Part shown: one piece after another, positions 29,103 to 53,725 of the stretch | How the letters are laid out: every line of letters begins with the position of its first letter | Position numbering within the stretch: position 1 is the stretch's first letter | Assembly: GCF_038789205.1 (NCBI RefSeq) | Contig: NZ_CP128355.1 | Coordinates: 434,001 to 498,000 of the forward strand | Length of the DNA stretch: 64,000 bases | Direction of reading: 5' to 3' | DNA from: Staphylococcus hsinchuensis | GTDB lineage: Bacteria > Bacillota > Bacilli > Staphylococcales > Staphylococcaceae | The notes under the pieces: generated by a model | The model's database searches: none | What the model saw: the letters and a program-made list of their open reading frames with translations, nothing else | Told to the model about the DNA's origin: nothing | Position numbers and translations under genes: made by a program

Positions 29103-30603
29103 GGAGCACCTCTTTAATTAGATTTTTCCATTTTTTCACGATTTTAGTAGTTTTAAATGGCTCAGCTATTTCATATGAAGTTTCATGCGACTGCTTTAAA
29201 CCTTTATTGAAATAGTTAACCATATGTTTAGCTAAACAGTTTACAATGACCTCGTTACTGTCTTCATCTAAATCAATTGGAATTAAATAGCCATTTCCTT
29301 TATGACGAATAAATGTTGGATTTCCATAATTTACATCAAATCCAATCATACTCAATCCTGAACCGACCGCTTCCATCAACGTTAAACCAAAGCCTTCACT
29401 CGTCGATGCAGAAACAAATAGTTCATAATTTACATAAACATCGTCTAAATTGACGTGACCTAACAATTTAATGTAATCATTGGCGTCATTTTCTTCAATG
29501 ATACGCGCAATATTACCTTTTTCTCCACCTTCACCATAAATATCAAAGGTAAGTTCCGGAACTTGTTTTTTCGCTTTTATAGCTGCACGCACGAGCCAAT
29601 CAATATGCTTCTCATTTGCTAAGCGTGAAGCTGTAATCATCGCATAAGGATTACGACGTTTTTTAGATTTTTTCAATTGATCTAAACTGCCAACTGGTAT
29701 CGTTCGAATGCGAGGAATATAACCGACGTATTGTTCGAACTGTTTACTTAAAATATCGTTTTGTAAATCTGTCGCCGTTATGAAGAAATCAATCTCATGC
29801 GCATTTGAAAACTGATATTCATAATAATTATTCCATAGAATATGTTGTTTATTTTGGATGCTCTTACTGAAATGTTCGGCATGTACAACGACACCAATTT
29901 TGCTTTGACCTTTATTCTGCAACACTGACTGACCAATCTTAGAAGCTCTATCTAAAATTAAAATATCTTGGTTCGTCAGCTCTAGTTTTTGAATAAAATA
30001 ACCTACAAATGCTTCTTTACTGTAGAGTTTCGCATCTTTAAAAGCATAAACGCTCGAATCACCATCGATGTATTCATTATAAACAATCGATCCATCTTCG
30101 TTATAGAATTGGCGCATGTAAAGTTTCGCTTTATTATCATGCGGAGCGTAATATTCTGAAAAGATCCTCACATAACTGTAAAAATCCTTTCTAATGAGCA
30201 TGCCATTAACAACAAATTCCGCACGATCTACAATATCTTTCTCCTGATCCTTTAAATAACACGTCACAAACGTCTGTGCATTATTTAAAAATAAACGCTT
30301 TATCTTTCCTTTTTGTTCAGTTTTGGTCACTTTATTTCCTAAACTTGCGATGACATCTTCAACCGTATATGTTGTCGGAGCTATCTTTATATCAGAAAAA
30401 TATTGATACAACCAAATGACTTCATCATCTTTAAATCCAAGATTTTGCGTTAACGTTTGTATATTTTCAGATTGAATAAAGTCTAAAAATATGAATTTCA
30501 TGTCATGTTTCGTATTCCTCAACAACTTAGCACGGTATGCTTGAGCATATTCAACACCACTACTGGCCCAACCTATACCAAAGTTTATATTATAAATTGT
30601 CAT
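29095..30603 (-). CDS. gtfA: Accessory Sec glycosyltransferase GtfA (first cluster)
   Basis: A 502-residue family 4 glycosyltransferase that, with GtfB, adds GlcNAc to Ser/Thr of the serine-rich adhesin in the cytoplasm. It begins MTIYNINFGIGWASSGVEYA, has a beta-rich insertion (about 70-200), then the C-terminal GT-B domain with SRLANEKHIDWLVRAA and the donor-site motif EGFGLTLMEAVGSGL (E-x7-E). The chosen ATG at 30603 is 7 bases after GAGGTG; the frame is open to 30618 but this overlaps the ribosome site. The secA2 stop lies 17 bases upstream. Confidence 0.92.
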   Translation of the reverse strand: MTIYNINFGIGWASSGVEYAQAYRAKLLRNTKHDMKFIFLDFIQSENIQTLTQNLGFKDDEVIWLYQYFSDIKIAPTTYTVEDVIASLGNKVTKTEQKGKIKRLFLNNAQTFVTCYLKDQEKDIVDRAEFVVNGMLIRKDFYSYVRIFSEYYAPHDNKAKLYMRQFYNEDGSIVYNEYIDGDSSVYAFKDAKLYSKEAFVGYFIQKLELTNQDILILDRASKIGQSVLQNKGQSKIGVVVHAEHFSKSIQNKQHILWNNYYEYQFSNAHEIDFFITATDLQNDILSKQFEQYVGYIPRIRTIPVGSLDQLKKSKKRRNPYAMITASRLANEKHIDWLVRAAIKAKKQVPELTFDIYGEGGEKGNIARIIEENDANDYIKLLGHVNLDDVYVNYELFVSASTSEGFGLTLMEAVGSGLSMIGFDVNYGNPTFIRHKGNGYLIPIDLDEDSNEVIVNCLAKHMVNYFNKGLKQSHETSYEIAEPFKTTKIVKKWKNLIKEVLHD

Positions 30604-30620
30604 CTCAGTACACCTCATAA

Positions 30621-33011
30621 TTATGGGAAATGTATTACTAAATCACCATCATCATAAGTAATAATACTTTGACATAGGTTTTTAACTACATTTCCTTTTA
30701 TTTTACTTCCCATATATTCAAAAGATTCTAATGCTACTTTATGGTATTCGAAAATCGCATTACGTTGACCATTCTGCCTATTATTCACACTACCCTTTAA
30801 CTGTTGTAAATTATCAACTTGGTTAATCCAACCACTATCAATCGCTTTTAAGATTGATTTTTGAGTAAATCTTAGATGAAAATAATCATCTTTAAGCTGA
30901 GCTTTATTTTCCGATAGCTGTTTGTTAAATTGTTCCATCAAAAATTCTAGAACTTCTGATTTATTTGTAATGTTAATAGTAGAAAGATCACCATCAAATT
31001 TAAAACTTATATTTTTATAAATATAGTCTAACAATAATGATTCTGTAATTTGATTGTGTTTTAAAATGAAATCTTCTTTGAATACGTCACGCGCTAATGA
31101 TTGTAAATTAAAATCATCAACATTTTTCAAAGATAAAACTTTATCTCTTTCTTTATAAACTAAATCTCTTTGAATACTTATGCTTTTTTCATGTTCATTA
31201 GCTATTTCTCGCATTGCAACACCTTGTTCTTCTGACACACGTTGTGCTCTCGTCACAACTTTATGAACTCGACGTTGAAACACACGGCTATGTTCTAACT
31301 TGGAATTATCCATAGACTGTAACTGTTTATTTTTATTCAGCGCGGTCTCGCCCCATCTTTGCACTAAGAAATCATCTAGTGATATAAAAACTTGCGAAGT
31401 TCCTGGGTCACCTTGTCTTCCCGCACGACCTCTTAATTGATTATCTACACGACTATTTTCCATATGTTCACTAATAATAACGGCTAGTCCACCAAGTTCA
31501 TGCACTTTACGATCTAATTTAATATCGGTACCACGCCCTGCCATACTTGTCGCAACAGTTACAGCAGCTAGTTGTCCTGCTTCAGCAATCATTTGTGCTT
31601 CTTTCGCTACGTTTTGTGCGATAAGTAAATTATTCGGAATATCCATTTGGAATAACTGAGTAGAAAAATATTTAGCCACTTCAGCTGTACGCGTTATTAG
31701 TAACACGGGGCGTTGTGCTTCATGTAACCTTTTCACTTCTTCGATAATGGCTTTATTTTTAATATTAATATTTAAGAATACGCGATCTTTATAATCTATG
31801 CGTTGTATAGGCTTGTCGGTAGGTATTTGGATAACAACTTTAGCGTATAAATCGAAAAATTCTGCTTCGCCCGACTTACCTGTACCAGTCATCCCTGAAA
31901 ATTCATCAAATTGTTTAAAAAGATTTTGGAATGTAATTGTAGCCATAACACTCAAATCTCTAGATATTTCAACATCTTCTTTCGCTTCTATCGCTTGATG
32001 TAATCCGGATTGCAATTTTGTACCTGGCAACATACGACCTGTAATACGATCTATTAATACAACTTCACCATTATTTATAAAATAATCGTAATTCGATTCA
32101 AATAGGTGACGTGCACGTAACGCTAAATTAATATTTCGAACTAGATCAAAGTATTTTTCACCATATATATTTTCAACATTGAAATAATCATTCGCTGCTT
32201 GGATACCTTTTTCAGTTAGCCATATTTCTTTTTTAGACTTTTTCATTTCAAAGTGTTCATCTTCTACTAATGTGTCAACAAAACCTTTTGTAATATTAAA
32301 TAAGTTCGATTGCACACGTGGTGCACCTGAAATAACTAAAGGTGTCTGCGCAGCATCTAAAATTATAGAATCCACCTCATCAATAATCCCAAAGTTCAAA
32401 TCTGGTAAAAATTTGTCATCTATATGATCGGCTAAGTGGTCGATTAAATAATCAAACCCTAAACGACCATTTGTCGTATAAATAATGTCATGATTGAAGA
32501 TGGCTTTCTTCTCGCCTTTTTTATATTCATAATCAGGGATATCAACAAAACCTAACGCACTCGTTAAACCAAGCCATTCGTATAAAGGTTTCATTTCGAG
32601 AAAGTCACGTTTGGCTAAATAATCATTGGTTGTGATTAAAAATGCACCGCGTCCAGTCAATGCATTTAAATACAGTGGCATGGTTGCTGTTAATGTTTTA
32701 CCTTCACCTGTCTGCATTTCTGCGATATTACCTTCATGTAAAGCGATGGCTCCTAATACTTGTACTTCTTTCGGGTACATGCCTAACACACGTCTGCTCG
32801 CTTCACGTGCAACTGCATACGCCTCGGGTAATAGTTGGTTCAAGGTTACTTTTCCATCCTTGAGTCTTTGTTTAAAGTCACTTGTTTTTTGTTGAAGTGC
32901 TTCGTCAGTGAATGACTCAAATTTCGTGCTATATTCATTGATTTTACGTAAAGTCTTTTCTAAACGGCTTAATCTCATTGAATTAATTATTGAATCTATT
33001 TTTTGTTTCAT
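30621..33011 (-). CDS. secA2: Accessory preprotein translocase ATPase SecA2 (first cluster)
   Basis: A 796-residue DEAD-type SecA ATPase shorter than housekeeping SecA, as usual for SecA2, and lacking the C-terminal zinc-binding tail. Walker A is TGEGKT at 101-106, Walker [21 protein letters not shown] near 210, and motifs [10 protein letters not shown] and [14 protein letters not shown] lie near 500-560. It drives export of the glycosylated serine-rich adhesin through SecY2. GGAGGT precedes ATG 33011. The asp3 fragment upstream overlaps its start by 29 bases. It is intact, but its cluster has lost adhesin, secY2, asp1 and asp2. Confidence 0.93.
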
Positions 33012-33815
33012 TGGTACCTCCGTTTTTTACAGTACGTATATCAAGATACTCCAAATAACGCGTTTTATTTAATACAGGTTGCATGACCTCCATACCATGT
33101 GGTCGATGTGTTTCCGTATCAAAGTATACATATGGTTTTGTGATTGGATGGGATTGATTATTTTCACCTATGACTTCAGATAATTTTTTGGCAAACGAAG
33201 TATTTTGATGGAATGTTATAAAAGGTTGACCCTCTATTATATGACTCATGGCTTTAGAAAATTCATTTGATAAAGGGCCATAACCAATTAAATTCAACTC
33301 GCAATCAGAATAATTCTGAGTGAGATGCTGCTTTATCATAGACATTCCGTCCGTTAACTTTCCGTTATACCAACCTTTAATAAGTAACACGTTTTCAAAC
33401 TTACGTATAGCTTCTGAAGATACAGTCGTTTGTTGTTGCGTAGTAGGTTCCACAAAGATTATATTTAACATTTGATGTGCTTCATTTTTGTTTAATAACT
33501 CACCTATTTGTACAGTATTTATCTGTTCATTCACTTCACAGATTGTAAGCTTTTTAAATTTGAGTGATTGTGACGCAGCATTGATCATTTGTAATTTATA
33601 CGTATGTGCATCTTTAGGATAATAAATCTCTATATCAAGGTCGTTAATAATTTTTGTATCGATGACAGACCCATTTTTCTTATAAAAAATCAATTTAAAA
33701 TAAATACTATTTTCAGGTGTTACTGTGTAATCAAAGTTAAAATGATACGTGCAACCCTTTTTTAATATGGGTAAAGATGGGATTGCTTTATCTTTACTAA
33801 AACTAGTAAACATCG
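32983..33815 (-). pseudogene. asp3: asp3 of the first cluster, 5' end removed by IS431
   Basis: Aligns to the second Asp3 from MFTSF (opposite MLSSY) through KKGCTYHFNFDYTVTPENS and YPKDAHTYKLQMIN. About the first 48 residues are missing, because IS431 begins at 33816. The frame continues into the IS terminal repeat, where TTG at 33828 would give a hybrid MQQNP start, and ATG at 33813 could start a 276-residue product. Neither has a normal ribosome site. The remaining C-terminal part is far longer than that of the second Asp3 (168 residues total). Asp3 binds the adhesin and SecA2 in other systems; this copy is probably non-functional or altered. Confidence 0.8.
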
Positions 33816-34608
33816 GGTTCTGTTGCAAAGTCAGAAAAAATATAACTAATTATCATTTTAACATGGTAGTATTCCCTTAACTGGCCAACATGTGATTAAT
33901 TTCGTAGCACGGCGAAAATCCGTAGATCTGAAGAGACCTACGGTTCTTTTTATATAGACCATAAATACATTCAATACCTTTGAGTGTATTCTTTGCCGTA
34001 TTGACGCTTTGATATCTCGTCTTTCTCACTTTAATATGACGGTGATCCTGCTCAATGAGGTTATTAAGATATTTAGATGTACAATGACAGTCGGGATTAA
34101 GTTTAAAATCTTTAATCAACTTAGACATTGCCACCTTCGTCGAAGGTGCCTGGTCTGTAATTATCATTTGAGGTTTACCAAATTGTTTAATAAGTCGCTT
34201 AATAAACGCATATGCTGAATGATTATCTCGTTTCTTACGTAACCAAATATCCAATGTATGACCATCTGCATCAATGGCACGATATAAATAGCACCATTTT
34301 CCTTTTATTTTAATGTATGTCTCATCAACGCGCCATTTATAATAAGCTTTTTTATGCTTTTTCTTCCAAATTTGATACAAAATAGGAGCATATTCTTGAA
34401 CCCAACGGTAGATCGTTGAATGATGAACGTTAACGCCGCGTTCTCTTAGTATTTCAGATATATCACGATAACTAAGCGCGTATCTTAAGTAATAGCCGAC
34501 GGCTACAGTTATTACATCTTTATTAAATTGCTTATATCTAAAATAATTCATAGAGAACGCTCCTTTTTTGTTAAAATTATACTATAAAATTAACTTTGCA
34601 ACAGAACC
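33816..34608 (-). mobile_element. IS431/IS257 (IS6 family), complete
   Basis: 793 bases bounded by terminal repeats GGTTCTGTTGCAAAGT (33816-33831) and AACTTTGCAACAGAACC (34592-34608), enclosing one 224-codon transposase gene. The 8 bases on each side (AAACATCG left, ATATTTCA right) do not match, so there is no target duplication; this fits cointegrate formation, deletion or recombination rather than a simple insertion. The left end sits inside asp3, the right end inside an older IS431-like remnant. Confidence 0.95.
33877..34551 (-). CDS. tnp: IS431 transposase (IS6 family, DDE)
   Basis: A 224-residue IS6-family transposase, full length. An HTH lies in YRDISEILRERGVNVHHSTI; the DDE catalytic core is visible as WRVDETYIKI (first Asp), ITDQAPSTK (second Asp) and NLIEQDHRHIKVR (Glu). 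AAAAGGAGC precedes ATG 34551. It is very close in length and sequence to the element that forms composite transposons and plasmid cointegrates in staphylococci. Confidence 0.95.
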   Translation of the reverse strand: MNYFRYKQFNKDVITVAVGYYLRYALSYRDISEILRERGVNVHHSTIYRWVQEYAPILYQIWKKKHKKAYYKWRVDETYIKIKGKWCYLYRAIDADGHTLDIWLRKKRDNHSAYAFIKRLIKQFGKPQMIITDQAPSTKVAMSKLIKDFKLNPDCHCTSKYLNNLIEQDHRHIKVRKTRYQSVNTAKNTLKGIECIYGLYKKNRRSLQIYGFSPCYEINHMLAS

Positions 34609-34766
34609 ATATTTCAGATATATCACGATAACTCAATGCATATCTTAGATAGTAGCCAACGGCTACAGTGATAACATCTTTGTTAAATTGTTTATATCTG
34701 AAATAGTTCATACAGGGTTCTCCTTTTTGTTAAATTATACTATAAATTCAACTTTGCAACAGAACC
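34609..34766 (-). mobile_element. IS431-like remnant (5' end of a second copy)
   Basis: 158 bases that repeat, with substitutions, the transposase start region (codons for MNYFRYKQFNKDVITVAVGY and on to about RDISEI) and end in a second terminal repeat AACTTTGCAACAGAACC at 34750-34766. The rest of this copy was lost at the junction with the complete IS431. Confidence 0.9.
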
Positions 34767-34819
34767 TATAATATAACAAAATAACAAAGATGTTTTATCT
34801 ATGTCGTTATAAATTTTAT

Positions 34820-35386
34820 TTATTTTAGATACTTTTTATATTCCTTATAACTATAAGGATCTTTCAACTTCTTATCATTCACATAAACCGTTGGTGCCTC
34901 TTTCACACCTTTATCTTTATAGCGTCGCACATCTTTTTTAGCATCTTTCCATGATTGGCTATTTTTCGTTCTATAATCTTTTTTGATTTTATTTGTTTTA
35001 CTCTTACTTAAATTCAATTTGTCTATTTGCTTATCAATTAACTTTCTAGTAATCCATTTGTTCTCATGGTTAGGTTGTTTTGAAAACATAAGTTTTTGGA
35101 ATTTTAAAGACTTTTTAGGCGCTATATTTTCAACAGCATGAGCGGCACGAGAACCTGTTACTGAGTCTTTACCTAAAAAAGCCATGTTCACGAATTGATA
35201 GTCAGCTTTCCCTTTATCAATATAATCTTTTTCTAGTTTAGGCATGATGTGATCATCTACTTGCTTACAATAAGGACATTTGAAATCACCATACTCCACA
35301 ATTTTATTTTTAGGTTTATGATGATTACTATTTGAACATCCTGCTAAAAATAATAATATTAGAAAGCAAAATAACATTCGTTTCAT
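34820..35386 (-). CDS. DsbA-like thiol-disulfide oxidoreductase lipoprotein
   Basis: A 188-residue lipoprotein: signal MKRMLFCFLILLFLAGCSNS with lipobox LAGC, so the mature protein is membrane-anchored outside the cell. A thioredoxin-fold DsbA/BdbD domain follows, with EYGDFKCPYCKQVDDHI (CPYC active site) and KEAPTVYVNDKKL near the C-terminus (cis-Pro loop). It should form or isomerise disulfides in secreted proteins. Upstream is TTGACT-18-TATAAT (35414-35443, minus), which puts transcription start after an upstream in-frame ATG at 35413 and supports the start at 35386. It is divergent from a secreted protein whose only two cysteines bracket its glycine-rich segment, the obvious candidate substrate. 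Confidence 0.85.
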   Translation of the reverse strand: MKRMLFCFLILLFLAGCSNSNHHKPKNKIVEYGDFKCPYCKQVDDHIMPKLEKDYIDKGKADYQFVNMAFLGKDSVTGSRAAHAVENIAPKKSLKFQKLMFSKQPNHENKWITRKLIDKQIDKLNLSKSKTNKIKKDYRTKNSQSWKDAKKDVRRYKDKGVKEAPTVYVNDKKLKDPYSYKEYKKYLK

Positions 35387-35413
35387 AAAATAGTTACATC
35401 CTTTTTTTGACAT

Positions 35414-35443
35414 ATTATATTTAAATTTAATTAATAAAGTCAA
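35414..35443 (-). promoter_or_regulatory. Sigma-A promoter of the DsbA-like gene
   Basis: Read on the minus strand: TTGACT (-35), 18-base spacer, TATAAT (-10), 28 bases before the chosen start codon. A near-consensus vegetative promoter. Confidence 0.75.
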
Positions 35444-35560
35444 TATTTCAACGAATATGAATAAAATACAGACACTTATGAACTACAATAACTTTTAAAA
35501 CTATATAAATGGTAATTTATAGATAGATACAAAACAAATACATATTAGGAGAGATGACAT

Positions 35561-36142
35561 ATGGAAAAAGCATATAACGTAAAATCAAAAGTAGTTAAAG
35601 GCTTTGCTGCATTTGCTATCATAACTGGTATGACTGTTAGCACTGGTTTAGCGGACAATCATTCACAAGCTGCTGAAAATAACCAAACACAAAAAGCATC
35701 ATCTAAAAGTGCTGGTGAAATAGTAAAAATTGATGACAATATGGGTAGAATTGATTTAAATAAAAATATTACATACAATGTAGATGAAAATGGTATAGCT
35801 ACATTAAAAGATAAAAATACAAATAAAACAGAACAATTACCATCAACAGCTAAAGACAAAAACGGTAAAAATGTAAACATAGTTTATTTTGAAGAAAAAG
35901 GTAAATTAGGTATGCAGGTAGTTCCTAATCAACAAGACCGTAAAAAGAAAAAAGGGTCTGTTGCTAAATGTGTTATCGGAACAGCAGGCGGTGCTGTAGG
36001 AGGAGCAACAGCAGGAGGTCTTACAGGTGCTGGTGTGGGTACAGTTACATTACCAGTTGTAGGTACAGTAAGTGGTGGCGTTGTAGGTACAGTCGGTGGA
36101 GGTATCGGCGGTGCTTCAGGTGGCTACGTAGCAGGTTGCTAA
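35561..36142 (+). CDS. Secreted two-cysteine glycine-zipper protein, candidate bacteriocin precursor
   Basis: A 193-residue protein with an N-terminal signal sequence (VVKGFAAFAIITGMTVSTGL, likely cut after HSQA or QAA), a hydrophilic middle (about 40-125), a basic segment RKKKKGS near 128-134, and a C-terminal 57-residue Gly/Ala/Val-rich segment that begins with Cys137 and ends with the last residue, Cys193. These are the only cysteines; 22 of the 57 residues are Gly, arranged as GxxxG-like zippers. A disulfide would close the segment end to end. AGGAGAG lies 7 bases before the ATG. Neighbours are a divergent DsbA lipoprotein and a small membrane protein. By architecture I infer a Sec-exported, disulfide-closed bacteriocin or pore-forming peptide released after the basic site; a structural surface protein is the alternative. 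Confidence 0.6.
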   Translation: MEKAYNVKSKVVKGFAAFAIITGMTVSTGLADNHSQAAENNQTQKASSKSAGEIVKIDDNMGRIDLNKNITYNVDENGIATLKDKNTNKTEQLPSTAKDKNGKNVNIVYFEEKGKLGMQVVPNQQDRKKKKGSVAKCVIGTAGGAVGGATAGGLTGAGVGTVTLPVVGTVSGGVVGTVGGGIGGASGGYVAGC

Positions 36143-36158
36143 TTAAGGTGTGATAATT

Positions 36159-36344
36159 ATGGAGAATAAAATGTACAGATGGCCTATACTCTTTATAGTA
36201 ATAATCAATTATGTATTAATGCTAACACTCTTTTTATGGGTATCGAATATAGGGCGTTTAAATACATTATTGCTAACAATACCATTTCTTTTAATGACAA
36301 TAGTATACGTTATTAATTTTGTGAATTATCATAAGGACAAGTGA
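36159..36344 (+). CDS. Small membrane protein, candidate immunity protein
   Basis: A 61-residue product with two transmembrane helices (PILFIVIINYVLMLTLFLWV and LNTLLLTIPFLLMTIVYVIN) and a basic tail (YHKDK). The start is ATG 36159 with AAGGTG 8 bases upstream; a GTG at 36150 overlaps that site. It begins 16 bases after the glycine-zipper gene, so the two are an operon and share the terminator at 36367. Small double-spanning proteins behind bacteriocin genes are commonly immunity proteins; that role is inferred only from position and size. Confidence 0.6.
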   Translation: MENKMYRWPILFIVIINYVLMLTLFLWVSNIGRLNTLLLTIPFLLMTIVYVINFVNYHKDK

Positions 36345-36366
36345 ATTATCAAAATAGAGAACACAA

Positions 36367-36397
36367 AAAGGAGCTAACCTTAAAGGTTAGCTCCTTT
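36367..36397. terminator. Terminator of the candidate bacteriocin operon
   Basis: AAAGGAGCTAACCTT and AAGGTTAGCTCCTTT form a perfect 15-bp inverted repeat followed by CTTTT, 23 bases after the small membrane-protein gene. Confidence 0.88.
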
Positions 36398-36404
36398 CTT
36401 TTAA

Positions 36405-36450
36405 CCTAAAAAACGTAAGTCTAGGACTAACGCCTAGACTGATTTTTAGG
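36405..36450. terminator. Second long hairpin, convergent with the first
   Basis: CCTAAAAA-ACGT-AAGTCTAGG faces CCTAGACT-GA-TTTTTAGG across a short loop. It lies just downstream of the Sin operon on the minus strand and 8 bases from the other terminator, so it probably ends the opposing transcript. Confidence 0.65.
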
Positions 36451-36453
36451 TTT

Positions 36454-36559
36454 TTAAGGTTCTTCAAATTCCAATTCTTCTACATATACAAATTGATAAT
36501 GTTTTGGTCTTTTCTAAAAAATTACTTCTTAATTTTTTGATATCTTCATTGCTATACAT
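36454..36559 (-). pseudogene. Small gene at the end of the sin operon, apparently frameshifted
   Basis: The ATG at 36559 overlaps the stop of the upstream 95-residue gene, and GGAGG lies upstream. The first frame reads MYSNEDIKKLRSNFLEK; the next frame then reads RPKHYQFVYVEELEFEEP and stops at 36454. Removing one A from the AAAA run near 36511 would join them into a 34-residue protein. As it stands the product is a 31-residue peptide with an unrelated tail. Confidence 0.4.
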
Positions 36560-36839
36560 AATCGTGATACGCCTCCATTCGATCTTCTTCAAACTCTTGT
36601 AATTCACCTTTTGCTTGTTGCATGTCTACTAAGTCCATAAAATCACCAAGTTCTTTTTCTGAATTAGATCTAAAGTGTTCAATATCTTTTTCTAAATCAA
36701 CAACTCTCTCTTTCTCTTTGTAATTCAATAATCCATAAAGTATTTTATTAAACTCTTTAGGCTCATACTCATCTAAATAATTCTGTATATAATATTCTTT
36801 TTCTTCTTCTGTTACATATTCAGCAAAGTTAGCATTCAT
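36552..36839 (-). CDS. Acidic hypothetical protein, 95 aa
   Basis: A 95-residue, strongly acidic, helix-rich protein (FAEYVTEEEKEYYIQNYLDE, then VVDLEKDIEHFRSNSEKELG), possibly coiled coil. GGAGGAAT precedes ATG 36839, which lies directly after the stop of the 160-residue gene, so it is the third gene of the sin operon. No family is recognised; such small genes are common beside plasmid resolvases. Confidence 0.6.
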   Translation of the reverse strand: MNANFAEYVTEEEKEYYIQNYLDEYEPKEFNKILYGLLNYKEKERVVDLEKDIEHFRSNSEKELGDFMDLVDMQQAKGELQEFEEDRMEAYHDYV

Positions 36840-36842
36840 ATT

Positions 36843-37325
36843 TTATTCCTCCGATTCATTCTGTAATTTGTGTAATATTTTGATTACTAATGTAATATCA
36901 ACATCATATTTTTCAGATATTCGTTGTATTTCTTTATAATCCTTTATAAATGCTCCTATTTCACCATTATCATCAAGTTCAACATTTAAATTATCTTTAT
37001 TAGGTCGTAATTCGTTTACTATATTTTCGTAAATTACTTCTTGATCAATTATTATAAAATACAAGTTCATTTCCGATTCTACTTCGCATTCACAATCAGC
37101 TAACCTAAAGAATATTTTTTCAAGAATATGTTTTGAATGTTCAGGTAAATAACCACCCTTCTTTTCTAATGTAGGTACTATTTGTTCAGTACTATTTTTT
37201 ATTCTTGTGTATTCTCTTGGTTCTAATTCAAATAAGTTATTTAATATACGTAACAATAGATCTAAATTTTGCTCATTCATTTTATCTTGGATCATTCTTT
37301 GAATTATTTTATTATCTTTTATCAT
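36843..37325 (-). CDS. Hypothetical protein, 160 aa, in sin operon
   Basis: A 160-residue soluble protein (MIKDNKIIQRMIQDKMNEQN ... VDITLVIKILHKLQNESEE), rich in charged residues, with a leucine-rich segment NLDLLLRILNNLFELEP near residue 20. ATG 37325 lies 8 bases after the resolvase stop, with GGAGTGAT inside the resolvase 3' end; an in-frame start at 37358 lies inside the resolvase gene. Function unknown; context suggests a plasmid maintenance module. Confidence 0.6.
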   Translation of the reverse strand: MIKDNKIIQRMIQDKMNEQNLDLLLRILNNLFELEPREYTRIKNSTEQIVPTLEKKGGYLPEHSKHILEKIFFRLADCECEVESEMNLYFIIIDQEVIYENIVNELRPNKDNLNVELDDNGEIGAFIKDYKEIQRISEKYDVDITLVIKILHKLQNESEE

Positions 37326-37332
37326 TGTAAGA

Positions 37333-37956
37333 TCACTCCGATTCACGTTTGATTTCATTTTTTATACGTTGAACAGTTTTCATACCTAGACCATACTTTT
37401 TAGCTGTGCCCCTGATTGTTCCTCCATTCTTTAATACCTCTACTACTTTTTCATAAATAACTCGACCTTGAGGGTTATCACTATCTTTTGAATACTTTAC
37501 TTTCTTACCTTTATAACGTCCTTCTTTTTTAGCTCTTTCAATACCTACACGCTGACGCTCAAGCATGTATAAACGTTCTGTTTCGGCTTGAAATGTTAGA
37601 ACGGACAACATTACATTAAGCAATAACTTACCCATGCCATATTTATCATTGGCTGGTATATCGGGTAAATCTTTGGAATGAAGTATAATACCATCATTTA
37701 GCAACTCACGTACCATTTCTTCAACGACATTTGCCTTACGTCCTAGACGATCTAATTTGAAAACATATAGATCATCACCTTGTCTGATTTTGGCATTTAA
37801 TAAACTTTTAAAACCATCACGCTCGTAAGGACTTGTTGTACCACTTATCTCATCTACAAATATATTCTTGCGATCAACTCCTTGCTCAATTAACCAATTG
37901 ATTTGATTTTCCAGATGCTGTTCCTCAGTTGAGACTCTTGCATATCCAAATTTCAT
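37333..37956 (-). CDS. Sin-like serine recombinase (plasmid resolvase)
   Basis: A 207-residue small serine recombinase. The catalytic N-terminal domain begins FGYARVSTEEQ with active Ser9, then KLDRLGRKANVVEEMV (conserved Arg motif) and AETERLYMLERQRVGIERAK (E helix); the C-terminal HTH is TIRGTAKKYGLGMKTVQRIK. The C-terminal layout (NPQGRVIYEKVVEVLKNGG) resembles staphylococcal Sin, which resolves plasmid multimers at a res site upstream of its own gene. Tn552-type transposons insert preferentially into such res sites, and the transposon end here lies 95 bases upstream. AGGAG precedes ATG 37956 at long spacing (about 12). Confidence 0.85.
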   Translation of the reverse strand: MKFGYARVSTEEQHLENQINWLIEQGVDRKNIFVDEISGTTSPYERDGFKSLLNAKIRQGDDLYVFKLDRLGRKANVVEEMVRELLNDGIILHSKDLPDIPANDKYGMGKLLLNVMLSVLTFQAETERLYMLERQRVGIERAKKEGRYKGKKVKYSKDSDNPQGRVIYEKVVEVLKNGGTIRGTAKKYGLGMKTVQRIKNEIKRESE

Positions 37957-38050
37957 TTTGTTAAGTACTCCTCAAATTTCATTTTAGAACGCCACAAACA
38001 TTATAGGTGTAATACCCTAATGACAACATAAGTGTATCATCATATCAGTA
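37957..38050. promoter_or_regulatory. Probable half of the Sin res site
   Basis: A 94-base gap between sin and the transposon end. It is where the res site and promoter of a Sin-type gene should lie; it contains GGTGTAATACCCTAATGACA and a partially symmetric ATAAGTGTATCATCATAT. The transposon inserted at its far end. Assignment is by position. Confidence 0.4.
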
Positions 38051-38159
38051 TGTCACTTTACTTGGTATATGAGAATAATTTCACTTAATAAATGAGAAAA
38101 AGCAGCGTACTTTAATATGGTACGTTGCTTTTTCTATTATCGTATACCTATGACCAAAC
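38051..38159 (+). repeat. Left terminal inverted repeat of the Tn552-type element
   Basis: About 109 bases matching the complement of the right end (TGTCACTTTACTTG, TATATGAGAAT, AATAAAT, ATTATCG, CTATGACCAAACT) with scattered substitutions. It contains a 16-bp hairpin at 38095-38135 and the last codons of the p271 gene. Confidence 0.9.
38095..38135 (-). terminator. Hairpin terminator within left inverted repeat
   Basis: AGAAAAAGCAGCGTAC and GTACGTTGCTTTTTCT form a 16-bp stem (one G-U) just after the p271 stop, with a T run on the minus strand; ends the transposition operon inside the transposon. Confidence 0.75.
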
Positions 38160-38952
38160 TGTCTCTTGCTGTTTCTACAACCTCGGTGCTGATTTTATCT
38201 AAGCCATTTATATCCATAATTCTATCTATCTGCGCAAACAAGCGATGAATAAGTCTAAAATTACCCTTAGTGATTTTAATAATAGTTGTTATAGCTTCAT
38301 AGTCAGTGAAGTCTTCAAGTTTTAAATCAACTCCTAGATCTTGCCACTTATACTCTAATATATGATGTGTTTCATCTTTGCTTAAATTATCGAATTCATG
38401 TGCAAAACCTATACGAGAATATAGTTGAGGATAACGAGATAGTTTTTTCTCAATACCTGGCATACCAATGAATACCATTGCTAGGTCACGTTCATCATAG
38501 ATAGATCTTAATTGCTCTAAATGTTGCACTTTAAGTCTATCAATTTCGTCTATTATAATGAGTTCAATGTCTTGGAATGCATCACTAAAATTTTCACTAT
38601 GTTCATGCTCGTATTTATTTAAAACATGTAATTTTTGACCCAAATCAATACTTCCATTAATACTGTGTAAGTCACTACTCAATCTTGTTTGCTTTTCTGC
38701 TGGTGCAGTATAAAATATTTTGTCTACAGATAATATATCGTCCGTTGTTTTATTAGCTAAATCTTTCCAGCCCCTATGGTTAACCTGGTTTTCAATAATA
38801 TCCCAATTGGTATAATATCGTGAAGATAATGTTTTACCCACACCTGGTTGACCATAACATATACCAATATACTGATATTTAATACAAGCATCACAAAATT
38901 CAGCAAATCGTTTGTACTCTTTTGTTTCAATGAACTTCTGTTTTTTAGTCAT
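38137..38952 (-). CDS. Transposon ATP-binding protein (Tn552 p271/TniB-like)
   Basis: A 271-residue AAA-type ATPase that acts with the DDE transposase, probably choosing the target like MuB/TniB. Walker A is GQPGVGKT at 34-41; Walker B is IELIIIDEIDRLKVQHLEQL near residue 130, followed by MVFIGMPGIEKKL (sensor region). The length equals Tn552 p271. The ATG overlaps the p480 stop by 8 bases, with AAAGAGG upstream. The C-terminal codons are encoded within the transposon inverted repeat. Confidence 0.92.
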   Translation of the reverse strand: MTKKQKFIETKEYKRFAEFCDACIKYQYIGICYGQPGVGKTLSSRYYTNWDIIENQVNHRGWKDLANKTTDDILSVDKIFYTAPAEKQTRLSSDLHSINGSIDLGQKLHVLNKYEHEHSENFSDAFQDIELIIIDEIDRLKVQHLEQLRSIYDERDLAMVFIGMPGIEKKLSRYPQLYSRIGFAHEFDNLSKDETHHILEYKWQDLGVDLKLEDFTDYEAITTIIKITKGNFRLIHRLFAQIDRIMDINGLDKISTEVVETARDSLVIGIR

Positions 38953-40387
38953 TATGATACCTCTTTAGCTTTTTGACATTTTTGTCTATCTTGTGAGGTG
39001 AATAACTTTGATTTTTTTCTTCTTTTATTAAGTCAGTCGTACTAGGGCTAATAGCGTTTTGTTTCAAGTGCTTTCTTCTCTGACTACGAGCATGTTGTAT
39101 ATCCTTTATATCAATTGAATAATCAGATAAATCAGGAGATATAGCTGTACAAAGGAATTCATCTCTATAAAACACGCGTATTTCAGCCATATCATTGGGA
39201 TTGTAACGAATCAGTACATATTCACCTACATAAGCTGCTAAATTCGTATTACTATATCTAAATCCTTGAAAATGAATACCATCTGAATGGATTTTTCTAG
39301 ATTTAGGAATCTCTAGTAAGAGTAAATCGAGTTGTTCTAAACTACTGGGCATATTGGGGAAAAAGAGATTACTATTCCATCGACTTGTTGGTGAACAACC
39401 AATAGAACTGTGTTCTTTGTGATTATAGTCTTCAATCAAAAATTGGCGTAATTTTTCTTCGAACTCTTGAAATTCTAGTAAATTTTTAAACTCATCGTTA
39501 TTGTTTATATATCCAGGAATTTGCTCTAGGAATGTTTGATTGACTGTTTGAAAGAATCTTTCTATTTTTCCACGACCTCGTGGCACGCCAACTTTTGAAA
39601 ACATTAAATTAATTTTCAAATCAACAGCGACTTGTTCCATATGATGTGAAGTAAAGTCACTTCCATGGTCAGTATAGAACTTTTCAGGAATCCCACATAT
39701 TGGCCATCTTGTATCACTCTTATTCCAAATAGCTTGATGTAGTGTTAGGGCAGTATTCTTGGCATTAGGACTATCAAATGTTAAAAAGTAGCCTGCAATT
39801 GCACGACTATAATCATCCATAATAATGGTTAACCACGGTCTATTGATGTTACCTTTTTGATCTAATATATAGACATCTAGCAAAGTATGGTCGGCTTGCC
39901 ATATTTCATTGGGTCTTGAGGATTCTCTTATTTGTATTAAATCGTACTTATTTTGATAGTATTTTTCACCTTGGTTAGAGAAATCAATAACAGACTTAGG
40001 CATTGCTTTAATAATACTATAAACTTGTTTGTAGCTTGGTTTATCAAAATTATTTTCTATACAATAATTAACGATTTTCCTATGAATTGTAGCAATACTA
40101 TTTCTTTTATTCTTGAGTGAAAGGCGTTTAATCTCGTCAATTATGTTTTGTTCTAATTTATGATCACCTTTATCAACTCTTGTATTATGAATTAGACCAG
40201 TAAGCCCTTCTTCCTTATATAATTTATTCCACCTATAAAGTGTACTTAATGCAATGTCCTTATTTTTAGAAATACTTGATAAAGATTGATTTCCCAAGAT
40301 AAAAGGTTTTATTATATTGTACTTTTGAGTAGCTTCTTTACGTTTGGCTTCAGAAAAATTAGTTAGATACTTCTCCTTGTTTTTCAT
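38945..40387 (-). CDS. DDE transposase (Tn552 p480/TniA-like)
   Basis: A 480-residue transposase of the Mu/Tn5053/Tn552 type. An N-terminal HTH (FILGNQSLSSISKNKDIALS, near 29-48) precedes the retroviral-integrase-like core with the catalytic triad in WQADHTLLD (D166), FYTDHGSDF (D240) and GKIERFFQT (E276), then a C-terminal beta barrel. The length equals Tn552 p480. It starts 29 bases inside the end of the resolvase gene, so expression is coupled. The intact frame and triad suggest an active enzyme. Confidence 0.93.
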   Translation of the reverse strand: MKNKEKYLTNFSEAKRKEATQKYNIIKPFILGNQSLSSISKNKDIALSTLYRWNKLYKEEGLTGLIHNTRVDKGDHKLEQNIIDEIKRLSLKNKRNSIATIHRKIVNYCIENNFDKPSYKQVYSIIKAMPKSVIDFSNQGEKYYQNKYDLIQIRESSRPNEIWQADHTLLDVYILDQKGNINRPWLTIIMDDYSRAIAGYFLTFDSPNAKNTALTLHQAIWNKSDTRWPICGIPEKFYTDHGSDFTSHHMEQVAVDLKINLMFSKVGVPRGRGKIERFFQTVNQTFLEQIPGYINNNDEFKNLLEFQEFEEKLRQFLIEDYNHKEHSSIGCSPTSRWNSNLFFPNMPSSLEQLDLLLLEIPKSRKIHSDGIHFQGFRYSNTNLAAYVGEYVLIRYNPNDMAEIRVFYRDEFLCTAISPDLSDYSIDIKDIQHARSQRRKHLKQNAISPSTTDLIKEEKNQSYSPHKIDKNVKKLKRYHND

Positions 40388-40952
40388 CTTCCTTGTCCTC
40401 CAATTTATTGAGGTAACGATAAATAGTTGTACGTGAAACTTGCCATTGTTCTGCTATTGTTTTAATGGGTGTGCCATTATCATAAAGCGTCTTAAGTAAA
40501 TTCAAATCTTGTTTATTTAATTTTTCAGGCCTCCCTCCATATCTTCCTCTTGCACGTGCCGCAATTCGGCCAGCTGAAGAACGTTCTAAAATTAAATTAC
40601 GTTCAAATTCTGCAAATGCTGCGAATAAATGAAATAATAATTGTCCTGTAGAACTTGATTTATCCATCGTTATATTTTCTTCTAAACTATGAAAACTCAC
40701 GCCTCGTTCGTTAAGTTCATTAACTAATGTGATTAAATCCTCCATGTTACGTCCTAGTCTATCTAGTCTCCAAACAACAATGGTATCTCCTGACCTCGCA
40801 AATTCAATTGCTTTATCTAAACCAGGTCTTTTACTTTTTGAACCACTCATATGGTCATTAAATATCTTTTCACAACCATGTGTATTTAATCGATCTTCCT
40901 GTAAATTTAAATTTTGTAATCCAGTTGAAACTCTTGCATAACCTATTTTCAA
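40359..40952 (-). CDS. Tn552-type serine resolvase (BinR-like)
   Basis: A 197-residue small serine recombinase: IGYARVSTGLQ with catalytic Ser9, WRLDRLGRNMEDLITLV, AEFERNLILERSSAGRIAAR and a C-terminal HTH PIKTIAEQWQVSRTTIYRYL. It resolves cointegrates formed during transposition. Initiation is at TTG 40952, 8 bases after AGGAGG. It is more Tn3/Bin-like than the Sin-like protein at 37333. Its res site should be in 40953-41100. Confidence 0.88.
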   Translation of the reverse strand: MKIGYARVSTGLQNLNLQEDRLNTHGCEKIFNDHMSGSKSKRPGLDKAIEFARSGDTIVVWRLDRLGRNMEDLITLVNELNERGVSFHSLEENITMDKSSSTGQLLFHLFAAFAEFERNLILERSSAGRIAARARGRYGGRPEKLNKQDLNLLKTLYDNGTPIKTIAEQWQVSRTTIYRYLNKLEDKEDEKQGEVSN

Positions 40953-41100
40953 AATACAAACCTCCTATATACACCTTCAGTGTACCATAACTTAATCACA
41001 AGATCTTTTTTGAACATAGATTTTTTGTTGGGTTTTTGAACACATAATTCTATGTAATACATACTTATTTAGACATAAAAAACGAGTGTACAGAAAATGG
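40953..41100. promoter_or_regulatory. Probable res site of the transposon resolvase
   Basis: 148 bases between the resolvase gene and the ArsR-type gene, AT-rich with repeated short inverted parts (AACATAGATT, AATTCTATGTAA, TGTACC/TGTACA). Tn552-type resolvases bind directly upstream of their gene; exact subsites were not resolved by eye. Confidence 0.4.
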
Positions 41101-41805
41101 TTATTTTTTGCACACTTTCGTTGACCATAAATTTAATTCTTCGCATAATGCTTTTTTGCCATATGGTGTGAGAATTATTTCTCTTTTCATATTCCCTTCT
41201 CTTAACCATCCTAGTTCTAAAAATTTTTTCGTTAAAGCTAACGATAAAGGGCCAGCCAGGTGGTTTTGTCTTACCGTCCAATCAATATGTAACGGCAATG
41301 AATGAACATTAATATTTAGTTTGGCAATATTAATACCTAACTTACTAATCCATAATTCTCCGTCATGTGTCAGTTTATAACGAGAATTATCAGTTTCTTT
41401 TATGTATCCTTTTGTCATTAAAGCCTTTGTAATTTTAACACCCAGTTCTCCAGCCAAATGTCCATAACATGTTCTAGCAAATTCTAGTTTTTTCTTTTTT
41501 GTAAAATCATTTAACGAATTGGAAACTAAAGGTCCTGATACATTGGCAATTGACTCAATAGCTTTAGCTACTTCTTCATTAGATAACTGGTAGTATCTAA
41601 ACCTGCCTTGCCGTCTTACTATAATAAGATTACCTTCTATTAATTTTTTTAAGTGAGAACTTGCTGTTTGGGGAGAAACATTTGCTGACTTTGCCAATTC
41701 ACTTGCTGTTAGTGCGTGCATACCAGATAAATCCATTAATATTGACATTCTTGTAGCGTCACCTATTAATTGAGCAGTTTGAGTAATATTACTGTAAATA
41801 TTCAT
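41101..41805 (-). CDS. ArsR-type winged-helix regulator, cargo of the transposon
   Basis: A 234-residue regulator with an N-terminal ArsR HTH (TASELAKSANVSPQTASSHL, then KKLIEGNLIIVRRQGRFRYY, about residues 32-72) and a longer C-terminal domain with HIDWTVRQNHLAGPLSLALT, as in ArsR/GntR-like drug-sensing regulators rather than short metal sensors. No metal-binding Cys motif stands out. AGGGGGT precedes ATG 41805. It is divergent from the MFS exporter by 110 bases and probably represses it; TATAACAAG at 41834 and CTTGTTTTATA at 41884 could be operator halves. The inducer is unknown. Confidence 0.85.
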   Translation of the reverse strand: MNIYSNITQTAQLIGDATRMSILMDLSGMHALTASELAKSANVSPQTASSHLKKLIEGNLIIVRRQGRFRYYQLSNEEVAKAIESIANVSGPLVSNSLNDFTKKKKLEFARTCYGHLAGELGVKITKALMTKGYIKETDNSRYKLTHDGELWISKLGINIAKLNINVHSLPLHIDWTVRQNHLAGPLSLALTKKFLELGWLREGNMKREIILTPYGKKALCEELNLWSTKVCKK

Positions 41806-41915
41806 AGTTAATACCCCCTTTATATATCACTAGTATAACAAGCATTTATTTCGACATTCATTTAAATATTCTTATTTTATACTTGTTTTATAAAAGTTGA
41901 AAGGTGGGTTTTAAA

Positions 41916-43277
41916 ATGAAAAGAAACAGCCTCATTCACGAAAATTTAATTATACTAGTCACCAGTTTAGGTATGTTTTTATCAACATTAGATACTGGCA
42001 TTATTAATGTGGCCTTACCTACACTAACAAACGTATTTGATTCAAATTTAACTATAATGATGTGGACAGTAACATTATATACACTTATGTTAGTATCATT
42101 TATCACTCTGTTTGGTAAAATATCAGACGCTATAGGAAAAATAAAAATATTTAATTTCGGCATAATCTTATTTGGAATAGCTTCTTTATTATGCGCATTA
42201 TCTTCAACAGAGTATTTCCTTATTATTTTTAGAGCTATACAAGGTATAGGAGCAGCTATGGTACAAGCAACGGCAGCTGCACTTATTACATCTTATGTTT
42301 CTAATGATAAACAAGGAAAGGGTTTAGGTATATTTAGTATGGCACTCGGCTTAGGACCTATACTTGGGCCAAGTATAGGCTCTATATTATTAAACTTTAG
42401 TAATTGGTCTATGATTTTTTGGATTAATATACCTATCATCATACTTATAGTAGTCATAAACCAGGTTTTCATAGGAGAATTAAACGAGGAAAGATTTAAA
42501 TTAAATTTTGACTTTATAGGCAATATTTTAATGGTTGTAATGTTATCCTCACTCATTTTAGCTATAACTTTTTTAAAATCTCAGTTTATAATCGTTCTTT
42601 TGATAATATTTTTGATTAGTTTATGGCTATTTATAAAGTGGGAATCAAAAGTTAAATTCCCATTAATTCCTGTAACATGGTTACAAAATAAAATGATGTT
42701 GTCCCTACTATTTGGCATTTTCACTTTAGGAGGTTCTATGTCTTTAGGTTTCATTATCCCACCTTTTTATATAGAACAAAATCTTAAGTTAAATACATTG
42801 ATTGTAGGAATAGTTAACCTTTCTGCGCCATTAGGAATGGTTATTATGTCACAATTTTCTAATAAACTAACAAAAAAATTCAACAATCAATTATTGCTAA
42901 CTTTAAGTATATTACTGATGGGAATATCTTATTTAGTTATTGGTCTACTTCAATATAACCTATTGATATGGAAACTTATTGTACTGTTATTATTCTTTGG
43001 CTTTGGATGTGGTATATACTTACCTATTAATACTAGAAGTATTTTAAATTTAGTCAAAAAATCACAACAAGCTACAGCTGGATCATTACAAAGAATGATT
43101 CAAAATTTGGGAATTGCTTTATATTCATCTGTAAGTTCTATCACTATACAAATATTTAAGAACCACCATAATATGATTCATGGGTATATTGTCCTATGGA
43201 TTATGGCTTCTATTATTTTATTTATTGGATTTATCTTGTCAGTTAAAAATTTACTGGGTTATAAAAAAACTGAGTAA
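41916..43277 (+). CDS. DHA2-type MFS drug exporter, cargo of the transposon
   Basis: A 453-residue proton-driven exporter with about 14 hydrophobic segments. Family motifs are TLDTGIINVALPTL near residue 26 (motif D1), GKISDAIGKIKIF near 70 (motif A), RAIQGIGAAMVQATAAALI (motif B) and LGLGPILGPSIG (motif C, the antiporter motif). This matches DHA2 drug/H+ antiporters such as the QacA/LmrB group. ATG 41916 follows AAAGGTGGG; the frame opens at 41904 inside that site. Together with the divergent ArsR gene it replaces beta-lactamase genes in this Tn552-type element. The drug or toxin exported is unknown. Confidence 0.85.
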   Translation: MKRNSLIHENLIILVTSLGMFLSTLDTGIINVALPTLTNVFDSNLTIMMWTVTLYTLMLVSFITLFGKISDAIGKIKIFNFGIILFGIASLLCALSSTEYFLIIFRAIQGIGAAMVQATAAALITSYVSNDKQGKGLGIFSMALGLGPILGPSIGSILLNFSNWSMIFWINIPIIILIVVINQVFIGELNEERFKLNFDFIGNILMVVMLSSLILAITFLKSQFIIVLLIIFLISLWLFIKWESKVKFPLIPVTWLQNKMMLSLLFGIFTLGGSMSLGFIIPPFYIEQNLKLNTLIVGIVNLSAPLGMVIMSQFSNKLTKKFNNQLLLTLSILLMGISYLVIGLLQYNLLIWKLIVLLLFFGFGCGIYLPINTRSILNLVKKSQQATAGSLQRMIQNLGIALYSSVSSITIQIFKNHHNMIHGYIVLWIMASIILFIGFILSVKNLLGYKKTE

Positions 43278-43388: not shown

Positions 43389-43558
43389 TATATGACGCCG
43401 TTTGTCCATTTGTATTTGGTTTACATAATCATTTATTATGTAAATAATTTATATTAGATGAGTAGTAGCCAATGACTACAGTGATTATTTCTTTATTAAA
43501 TTGCTTATATCTATTTTTCGTTAAAATCATACTATAAAATTAACTTTGCAACATAACC
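43389..43558. mobile_element. Right flank of the transposon: palindrome and degraded IS431 end
   Basis: 43420-43444 is a perfect 10-bp inverted repeat (TTTACATAAT / ATTATGTAAA), perhaps part of a res or plasmid site. From about 43450 the sequence matches the IS431 transposase start region (AGTAGCCAATGACTACAGTG, TTATTAAATTGCTTATATCT) with a deletion of the start codon and ribosome site, ending with AACTTTGCAACATAACC at 43542-43558, an IS431 terminal repeat with one substitution. The terminal repeat overlaps the 3' end of the second gtfB. Confidence 0.8.
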
Positions 43559-46384: not shown

Positions 46385-46402
46385 CGTACCCCCCCCTATA
46401 TG

Positions 46403-48793: not shown

Positions 48794-48814
48794 TATGACA
48801 CCTCTTTCTGAATT

Positions 48815-49321: not shown

Positions 49322-49322
49322 A

Positions 49323-52416: not shown

Positions 52417-52429
52417 TAAAAATTCCTCC

Positions 52430-53623: not shown

Positions 53624-53659
53624 TTTTTCACCTAAAATTCTTAAATTTTAATATGAGTG

Positions 53660-53725
53660 CAAAGAGGCTAAAAACATAGTTGATTTACTATCACGTAAAC
53701 TCAATATTATGTCTTAGCCTCTTTG
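53660..53725 (-). terminator. Hairpin between adhesin gene and secY2
   Basis: CAAAGAGGCTAA and TTAGCCTCTTTG form a 12-bp outer stem around about 42 bases. The plus-strand side is followed by TTTTA, but the minus-strand side, where the adhesin transcript ends, lacks a T tract. It may act as a partial terminator or processing/stability element separating abundant adhesin mRNA from secY2 onward. Confidence 0.55.

What the first reader, a model, noticed from the sequence alone, without database searches (positions are those of the whole stretch)
35386..36344. Possible undescribed bacteriocin system: disulfide-closed glycine-zipper peptide with its own DsbA and small membrane partner
Seen: a Sec-type precursor whose only two cysteines are residue 137 and the very last residue 193, bracketing a 57-residue segment with 22 glycines, directly after a basic stretch RKKKKGS. 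A DsbA-like lipoprotein with CPYC is divergently transcribed from a near-consensus promoter 175 bases away, and a 61-residue two-helix protein follows in the same operon. Known: DsbA-type enzymes form disulfides outside the cell, and small double-spanning proteins next to bacteriocin genes often give immunity. Inference: the segment is released, ring-closed by one disulfide, inserts in membranes, and the three genes form a mobile toxin/immunity/maturation cassette on IS431-bounded DNA.
Basis: partly seen in the sequence, partly recalled or inferred. Interest (0 to 1): 0.85.

Follow-up and report, generated by a model that had tools for sequence, protein, structure and literature searches.

The report
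Staphylococcal disulfide-ring bacteriocin cassette
A mobile staphylococcal gene pair, here with its own disulfide-making enzyme, very probably makes a secreted peptide ring that harms competing bacteria plus a small membrane protein that protects the maker; the peptide matches no curated family that was searched.

Summary
In detail: a 193-aa Sec-type precursor (window 35561-36142) has only two cysteines (137 and 193, the last residue) around a 57-aa Gly-zipper; a DsbA lipoprotein gene is divergent (174 bp away) and a 61-aa two-helix protein follows. It is a family. In 23 of 23 full-length relatives (16 groups at 80% identity; staphylococcal chromosomes and plasmids, SPbeta-like phages, Priestia plasmids, two other Bacilli) both core cysteines and a 54-69-aa two-helix ORF just downstream are kept; 14 of 275 control ORFs have such a neighbour. 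Among partial relatives, one lacks the second cysteine and one the whole core. dsbA is optional (in cis in 2 of 23), but 12 of 17 non-core staphylococcal dsbA loci inspected lie beside a two-Cys secreted precursor or a double-glycine bacteriocin. The core is probably related to streptococcal double-glycine bacteriocin cores, here behind a Sec signal and a ~90-aa predicted beta pro-region. Processing most likely resembles E. faecalis EntV (Sec, DsbA disulfide, protease release). Precursor and partner reach no Pfam or NCBIfam cut-off. Killing, immunity, disulfide and cleavage are inferred, not shown. Verdict: real, probably a bacteriocin; new variant of a known kind.

The parts
35561..36142 (+). 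Precursor gene, 193 aa: Sec-type signal (about residues 1-37, by eye), pro-region (38-127), C-terminal core
   Evidence: alignment A1 of 18 full-length relatives
35672..35941 (+). Pro-region, residues 38-127, ending in Arg127; predicted beta-stranded (residues 52-122)
   Evidence: A5 alignment; AlphaFold model, block pLDDT 59-76 over residues 51-120
35969..36139 (+). Core peptide Cys137-Cys193, Gly-zipper, inferred one-disulfide ring
   Evidence: invariant K136, C137, C193 and Gly columns in A1; GxxxG excess
36159..36344 (+). 61-aa two-helix partner, inferred immunity protein
   Evidence: two hydrophobic segments, 16 nt after precursor stop; such an ORF in 23 of 23 relatives versus 14 of 275 control ORFs
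34820..35386 (-). dsbA: 188-aa DsbA-like lipoprotein, CPYC
   Evidence: phmmer to S. aureus DsbA structures 3bci/3bck/3bd2, E 2e-57; Pfam Thioredoxin_4 E 8.4e-23
35414..35443 (-). Promoter-like match TTGACT-18-TATAAT upstream of dsbA
   Evidence: consensus scan; sites not enriched over shuffles
36365..36399 (.). Terminator-like hairpin after the partner gene (16 pairs; listed by the scan on the - strand; a T-rich stretch follows on the + side too)
   Evidence: sequence
33816..34608 (-). IS431 copy left of the cassette; an IS431 end remnant follows to 34766
   Evidence: terminal repeats at 33816, 34593, 34751; transposase ORF 33877-34551

Best explanation
A Sec-exported bacteriocin with its immunity gene, carrying here its own disulfide-forming enzyme. 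The signal peptide takes the precursor through Sec. Outside the membrane a DsbA lipoprotein (the one encoded here, or the core chromosomal one where it is missing) joins Cys137 to Cys193. A secreted or wall protease cuts between pro-region and core, near Arg127, releasing a ~57-66-aa Gly-zipper ring that inserts into the membrane of related bacteria; the 61-aa two-helix protein in the producer's membrane blocks it. The pro-region probably keeps the hydrophobic core soluble and inactive until release. Shown: gene structure, family-wide conservation, presence on mobile DNA. Inferred: disulfide, cleavage, killing, immunity.
For: Both core cysteines in 23 of 23 full-length relatives, 16 groups at 80% identity. 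Two-helix 54-69-aa ORF directly downstream in 23 of 23 against 14 of 275 control ORFs. Patchy mobile distribution: matches in 20 of 84 genus genomes, 22 of 72,556 plasmid records, 4 of 50,697 phage records, all SPbeta-like or PhiSepi-HH3, Priestia plasmids, a second copy in the host genome. On a 4.3-kb S. haemolyticus plasmid (L012) the pair is most of the annotated cargo. The S. simulans relative L003 lies beside two short ORFs with double-glycine-type leaders and an ABC-transporter-like ORF, recognised by eye. Core probably related to streptococcal double-glycine peptides, most of which also have a small hydrophobic ORF next. Non-core dsbA loci sit beside bacteriocin-like genes in 12 of 17 inspected. 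Worked-out precedent: EntV is Sec-exported, needs DsbA and one disulfide joining its ends, and is released by GelE (PMC6606811).
Against: No activity, mass or expression data. dsbA is in cis in only 2 of 23; one genome with a family member (G448) has no match to this DsbA at E<=0.01. Gly-zippers converge easily: an unrelated zipper (L074) scored as high as true candidates in a shuffle test; of the double-glycine peptides with both cysteines, L066, L070, L079 and L080 (28.1, 24.7, 23.8, 19.7 bits) fall below the best non-bacteriocin control (28.5), and 3 of the 11 streptococcal-type hits (L081-L083) have no cysteines. Partner families of the two export types do not match convincingly (hhalign probability 21%). 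The junction before the core is not strictly conserved: Arg in most, Tyr in L033, L034, L039, L040, neither directly at that place in L062. Partial relative L041 lacks the second cysteine and L035/L064 lack the core.
Confidence: 0.72

Rival explanations
1. An EntV-like secreted effector whose main role is not killing bacteria but modulating another organism (for instance fungal hyphae) or acting as a signal, with the small protein as an export or sensing partner.
For: Same build as EntV, which is both bacteriocin and antifungal (PMC6606811; PMC9562342 passages).
Against: Profiles A3 and A1 found no relative among solved structures: A3 nothing at E<=10, A1 five unrelated chains at E 1.1-2.2. 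EntV is all-helical including its pro-part, whereas this pro-region is predicted beta. I saw no sensor gene among the neighbouring ORFs by eye.
Confidence: 0.08
2. A maintenance (toxin-antitoxin-like) or auto-active peptide pair: the core acts on the producing or sibling cells and the partner restrains it, as described for CipB/CipI in S. mutans.
For: Tight pair on plasmids, phages and IS-linked DNA; CipB accumulates inside producing cells and CipI is its immunity factor (PMC4615949 passages).
Against: A Sec signal and a long pro-region are not needed for an internal toxin; decayed precursors occur (matches in 6 of the 20 genus genomes contain stop codons).
Confidence: 0.1
3. An ordinary secreted or wall-associated Gly-rich structural protein with an unrelated membrane gene behind it.
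For: Gly-zipper segments occur in large unrelated proteins (many matches at E 3e-6 to 1e-3 lie in open frames of about 740-1,460 aa).
Against: Conserved end cysteines and partner in 23 of 23 full-length relatives, no wall-anchor motif by eye, patchy distribution on mobile DNA.
Confidence: 0.06

Closest known systems
EntV / enterocin O16 (E. faecalis EF1097)
   Same: Sec signal, pro-region, C-terminal peptide closed by one disulfide near its ends, DsbA-dependent, released by an extracellular protease (PMC6606811: abstract, introduction, sections 6 and 9 read)
   Different: No sequence relation found in the tests made; EntV core and pro-part are helical (PMC9562342, passages); entV and dsbA are apart on the chromosome (PMC6606811 discussion); protease here unknown
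Double-glycine Blp-type bacteriocins of streptococci, CipB/mutacin V type (that loci such as L078 are of this type is recalled, from no call)
   Same: In L065 and L075-L078: K/R-C start, GTVTLP..GTVSG zipper and Cys at the end, small hydrophobic ORF downstream
   Different: They use a double-glycine leader; the window protein has a Sec signal and a ~90-aa pro-region, and I saw no ABC exporter beside it
Dysgalacticin and streptococcin A-M57 (plasmid bacteriocins of streptococci)
   Same: Plasmid-borne; dysgalacticin is thought to leave by Sec and has an immunity gene beside it (PMC8308785, passages)
   Different: Class III in that review, 21.5 kDa for dysgalacticin; sequence relation not tested
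S. aureus DsbA (PDB 3bci) for the enzyme
   Same: Lipoprotein with CPYC, E 2e-57
   Different: A copy outside the core context; the host's other full-length DsbA is 56% identical

Membership tests
Class II bacteriocin with double-glycine leader (Pfam PF10439) | Double-glycine leader | tested here: not met
   Precursor begins with a Sec-type signal; no GG leader
Class II bacteriocin with double-glycine leader (Pfam PF10439) | Pfam model above its cut-off | tested here: not met
   No hit for P0001; relative L010 16.5 bits against cut-off 27.1
Class II bacteriocin with double-glycine leader (Pfam PF10439) | Core related to known double-glycine cores | tested here: inconclusive
   Core profile gives 31.9-38.3 bits to five streptococcal-type two-Cys peptides; four others give 19.7-28.1; best unrelated zipper 28.5; hhalign A3-A4 probability 97.8 without decoys
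Class II bacteriocin with double-glycine leader (Pfam PF10439) | Peptidase-containing ABC exporter beside it | tested here: not met
   None seen by eye among ORFs of window 30000-42000
EntV-like Sec-dependent disulfide bacteriocins | Sec signal, pro-region, C-terminal domain with two cysteines near its ends | tested here: met
EntV-like Sec-dependent disulfide bacteriocins | Sequence or fold relation to EntV | tested here: inconclusive
   A3: no chain at E<=10; A1: five unrelated chains at E 1.1-2.2; presence of EntV in that library was not confirmed; model of the core is low confidence
EntV-like Sec-dependent disulfide bacteriocins | DsbA dependence and protease release shown | not testable with these tools
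   needs bench work
Bacteriocin (functional definition) | Inhibits related bacteria; producer immune | not testable with these tools
   needs bench work
Staphylococcal DsbA lipoprotein | Lipobox, CPYC, similarity to S. aureus DsbA | tested here: met
Sublancin-type glycocin | Glycosyltransferase and ABC exporter beside the peptide | tested here: not met
   Neither lies next to the cassette by eye; the glycosyltransferase-like genes in the window look like parts of accessory-Sec loci

The most novel reading that the evidence does not exclude
One disulfide-closed Gly-zipper bacteriocin core has been carried by two export systems: a double-glycine leader in streptococci, and a Sec signal plus beta-stranded pro-region in staphylococci and Bacillus-like genera, with a ~60-aa two-helix immunity gene behind it. 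In staphylococci, DsbA genes outside the core context mark a larger hidden class of Sec-exported, pro-region-bearing, disulfide bacteriocins with several unrelated cores, on small plasmids, prophages and IS-linked DNA.
Probability: 0.45. Interest if true: 0.75.

Novelty: new variant of a known kind. Interest (0 to 1): 0.62.

Why it matters
In the plasmid and phage records I opened, these precursors are annotated 'hypothetical protein' or, in Priestia, also 'Pathogenicity island protein', and the partner is unannotated in several (for example L006, L009, L014 and the phages). If right, staphylococci share a mobile family of disulfide-closed bacteriocins that searches for double-glycine leaders would miss. 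It would give staphylococcal DsbA, for which the EntV paper names one affected protein in S. aureus (ComGC; PMC6606811 discussion), a clear role: a dsbA gene outside the core context becomes a pointer to new secreted disulfide peptides. The two-export-system reading would also show that a bacteriocin core can move between secretion systems.

Tried and rejected
Structural or surface protein: rejected as main reading because of the conserved end cysteines, the fixed partner and the mobile distribution. Circular bacteriocin or sublancin-type glycocin: no circularisation or glycosylation genes seen by eye beside the cassette. Sequence relation to EntV: no support. Two other Sec precursors (L008, L044) against solved structures: nothing at E<=1. 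Fold of the pro-region: AlphaFold model overall weak (mean pLDDT 42.4; pro-region about 70), Foldseek against PDB nothing at E<=0.001. Pairwise shuffle test for core homology: abandoned as proof because the unrelated zipper L074 reached z 7.7-8.6 with three of four Sec cores and 4.6 with the fourth; the profile ranking replaced it. The plasmid double-glycine peptides beside dsbA (L045, L051, L052) do not appear at >=10 bits, so for them only the layout is shared. Partner homology across export types: not established. Viral-contig scans found no relative. Literature: 10 searches listed no description of this family; the library holds open-licence papers only and I read few of those listed, so this does not show it is unpublished. 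The S. gordonii SdbA link to bacteriocins is indirect (PMC5112981 passages) and was not used.

Full report
Observation. The region was read and translated. The precursor (P0001, 35561-36142 +) has cysteines only at residues 137 and 193 of 193; the 57-residue span from one to the other holds 22 glycines and 14 GxxxG pairs, against a mean of 7.7 in shuffles of the same letters (3 of 10,000 reach 14). A signal-like N-terminus is followed by a ~90-residue pro-region and a basic stretch. dsbA (34820-35386 -) has a lipobox and CPYC; its closest solved structure is S. aureus DsbA (E 2e-57). The 61-aa ORF at 36159-36344 has two hydrophobic segments. A hairpin follows (36365-36399).

Curated families. 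P0001 and P0003 reach no cut-off in Pfam or NCBIfam; dsbA does (Thioredoxin_4).

A real family. tblastn of P0001 found 22 of 72,556 plasmid records, all Staphylococcus, and 4 of 50,697 phage records, all Staphylococcus phages of SPbeta-like kind or PhiSepi-HH3 (two of the four are one phage under two accessions). Genome search found matches in 20 of 84 genomes of the genus; matches in 6 of these 20 contain stop codons, so decay is common. The pro-region profile A5 matched 13 of 398 sampled genomes of the class, in 3 of 145 genera. I took 23 full-length precursors: the 18 of alignment A1, L062 and L063, the phage form L133 and two Priestia plasmid forms, L136 and L137. They fall into 16 groups at 80% identity. 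Left out: identical or near-identical copies (for example L005, L014, L055, L013; L134 and L135 equal L133) and copies that are broken, partial or have no full-length ORF from ATG, GTG or TTG (for example L002/L022/L037, L004/L025, L007, L008, L026-L029, L032, L035/L064, L036, L041, L042, L067). Of these partial ones, L041 ends in Tyr where the second cysteine would be and L035/L064 stop before the core; L004, L026, L028 and L032 keep both cysteines. All 23 full-length ones have both core cysteines, the second being the last residue or one to two before the end; five have a further cysteine, in the signal region or pro-region (L009, L021, L033, L034, L063).

The partner. In all 23 an ORF of 54-69 aa with at least two hydrophobic segments starts between 13 nt before and 79 nt after the precursor's stop (17, 6). 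As a control, 14 of 275 other ORFs of 150 aa or more in the loci held have such a neighbour. In the SPbeta-like phage records this ORF is not annotated.

dsbA in cis is optional. tblastn of P0002 over the loci then held found it beside the window cassette and its near-identical copies in S. pettenkoferi (L001) and Staphylococcus sp. Marseille-Q5304 (L002, broken precursor), and beside L034 (43% identical). It is not within the held flanks of the others (about 1.5 kb for most genome loci; up to 6 kb or the whole replicon for plasmids); for the phage and Priestia loci, fetched later, this rests on annotation and, which found DsbA only in two other phage records. So 2 of 23. In trans, 76 of 84 genus genomes have a P0002 relative at E<=1e-30; of four genomes searched more loosely, G002 and G040 have one at E about 1e-28, G236 at 6e-27, G448 none at 0.01. 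The host has a second full-length DsbA (56% identical). Its second cassette copy, on an 81.6-kb contig, is 99.9% identical over 1,491 bp but starts inside dsbA, which is cut at IS431, and has IS431 on both sides.

dsbA genes outside the core context mark bacteriocin-like loci. Of 31 genome loci with a DsbA, 8 lacked both marker genes of the core locus; three of these are the same cassette. Counting it once, adding L034 and 10 of the 27 Staphylococcus plasmid records, I inspected 17 loci. L104 and L123 are the only DsbA of their genomes at E<=1e-30, so for them 'extra' is not shown. Nine have a secreted precursor-like ORF with two cysteines in its C-terminal part (window, L034, L043, L044, L046, L047, L102, L103, L104; those of L102 and L103 are split or partial), three a double-glycine peptide annotated as Blp family with a peptidase-domain ABC transporter (L045, L051, L052), one a phospholipase-A2-family protein (L048), four none seen (L049, L050, L105, L123).

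Core relationship. Profile A1 matched a short double-glycine peptide at E 3.5e-15 in the class scan (L065), and 11 of 147 genomes of that genus at E<=1e-5; three of the 11 peptides (L081-L083) have no cysteines. Of 12 such loci examined, 10 have a small hydrophobic ORF within 400 nt downstream (not L079, L080). With the core-only profile, full Sec cores score 45-74 bits, two short Sec cores 24-27 (L038, L028), five double-glycine peptides with both cysteines 31.9-38.3, the others with both cysteines 28.1 (L066), 24.7 (L070), 23.8 (L079) and 19.7 (L080), and the best unrelated zipper 28.5 (L068). hhalign of A3 against A4 gave 97.8%, without decoys. Against this, pairwise shuffle z-scores do not separate an unrelated zipper (L074, z 4.6-8.6), and the partner families do not align (21%). 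I call shared ancestry of the cores probable, not shown.

Mechanism. EntV supplies the worked example: Sec export (predicted), a disulfide joining the ends, DsbA as likely catalyst, release by GelE, an M4 protease that the paper likens to aureolysin of S. aureus (PMC6606811: abstract, introduction, sections 6 and 9 read). There too dsbA is not beside the gene, which fits dsbA being optional here. The junction before the core carries Arg in most relatives (for example QDR-K, QER-G, QTR-G) and Tyr in L033, L034, L039 and L040; the protease is unknown. The pro-region is predicted as eight beta strands (residues 52-122), with no solved-structure match at E<=0.001, unlike EntV's helical pro-part (PMC9562342, passages).

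Novelty. The kind, a Sec-exported disulfide bacteriocin with pro-region, is known; this family, its predicted beta pro-region, its Gly-zipper core and its tie to DsbA genes outside the core context were not found described in 10 literature searches of an open-licence library. I rate it a new variant of a known kind.

Noticed in passing
window 27762-33828 and 43540-63162: Two accessory-Sec-like loci: a truncated one (two glycosyltransferase-like genes, a SecA2-like gene and an Asp3-like ORF ending at IS431, 33816) and a fuller one with SecY2-like and Asp-like genes followed by a 3133-aa Ser-rich repeat protein. Names are recalled from sequence, not from a family search.
   Followed up: no
window 38137-40952: Tn552-like set (ATP-binding protein, 480-aa transposase, resolvase); names recalled.
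   Followed up: no
L016 (host contig C2, 81.6 kb): Second copy of the cassette, 99.9% identical over 1,491 bp, with IS431 on both sides and dsbA cut near its start.
   Followed up: partly
L043 4826-5440, L044 6852-7466, L046 3629-4246, L047 4891-5490: A different Sec-type precursor with two cysteines, divergent from a dsbA gene and convergent with a ~68-aa hydrophobic ORF: a likely second bacteriocin family of the same layout.
   Followed up: partly
L102 561-1398, L103 2137-2609: Another two-Cys core (starting DACDA, ending ACNHA) with an 87-aa hydrophobic ORF and a dsbA gene; precursor split or partial in both.
   Followed up: partly
L048 455-1903 (S. epidermidis plasmid SAP108B): DsbA gene next to a secreted phospholipase-A2-family protein (Pfam PF00068, E 9e-9).
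   Followed up: partly
L003 1956-2265 and 4656-5303: S. simulans contig: beside the family member lie two short ORFs with double-glycine-type leaders, an ABC-transporter-like ORF and another Sec-type Gly-rich precursor (by eye).
   Followed up: no
L133, L134, L135 (SPbeta-like staphylococcal phages): The bacteriocin-like pair sits on SPbeta-like phages; SPbeta of Bacillus carries sublancin (recalled), so this phage group may carry bacteriocins repeatedly.
   Followed up: partly
L008 6870-7463 (S. simulans pACK2): Another Sec-type precursor with two cysteines and an ERG-V junction, near a broken family member.
   Followed up: partly
L043 7775-9560, L044 8921-10706: A CHAP-domain protein and an aminoacyltransferase gene lie on the same small plasmids as the second precursor family; possible link to cell-wall lysis and resistance to it.
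   Followed up: no
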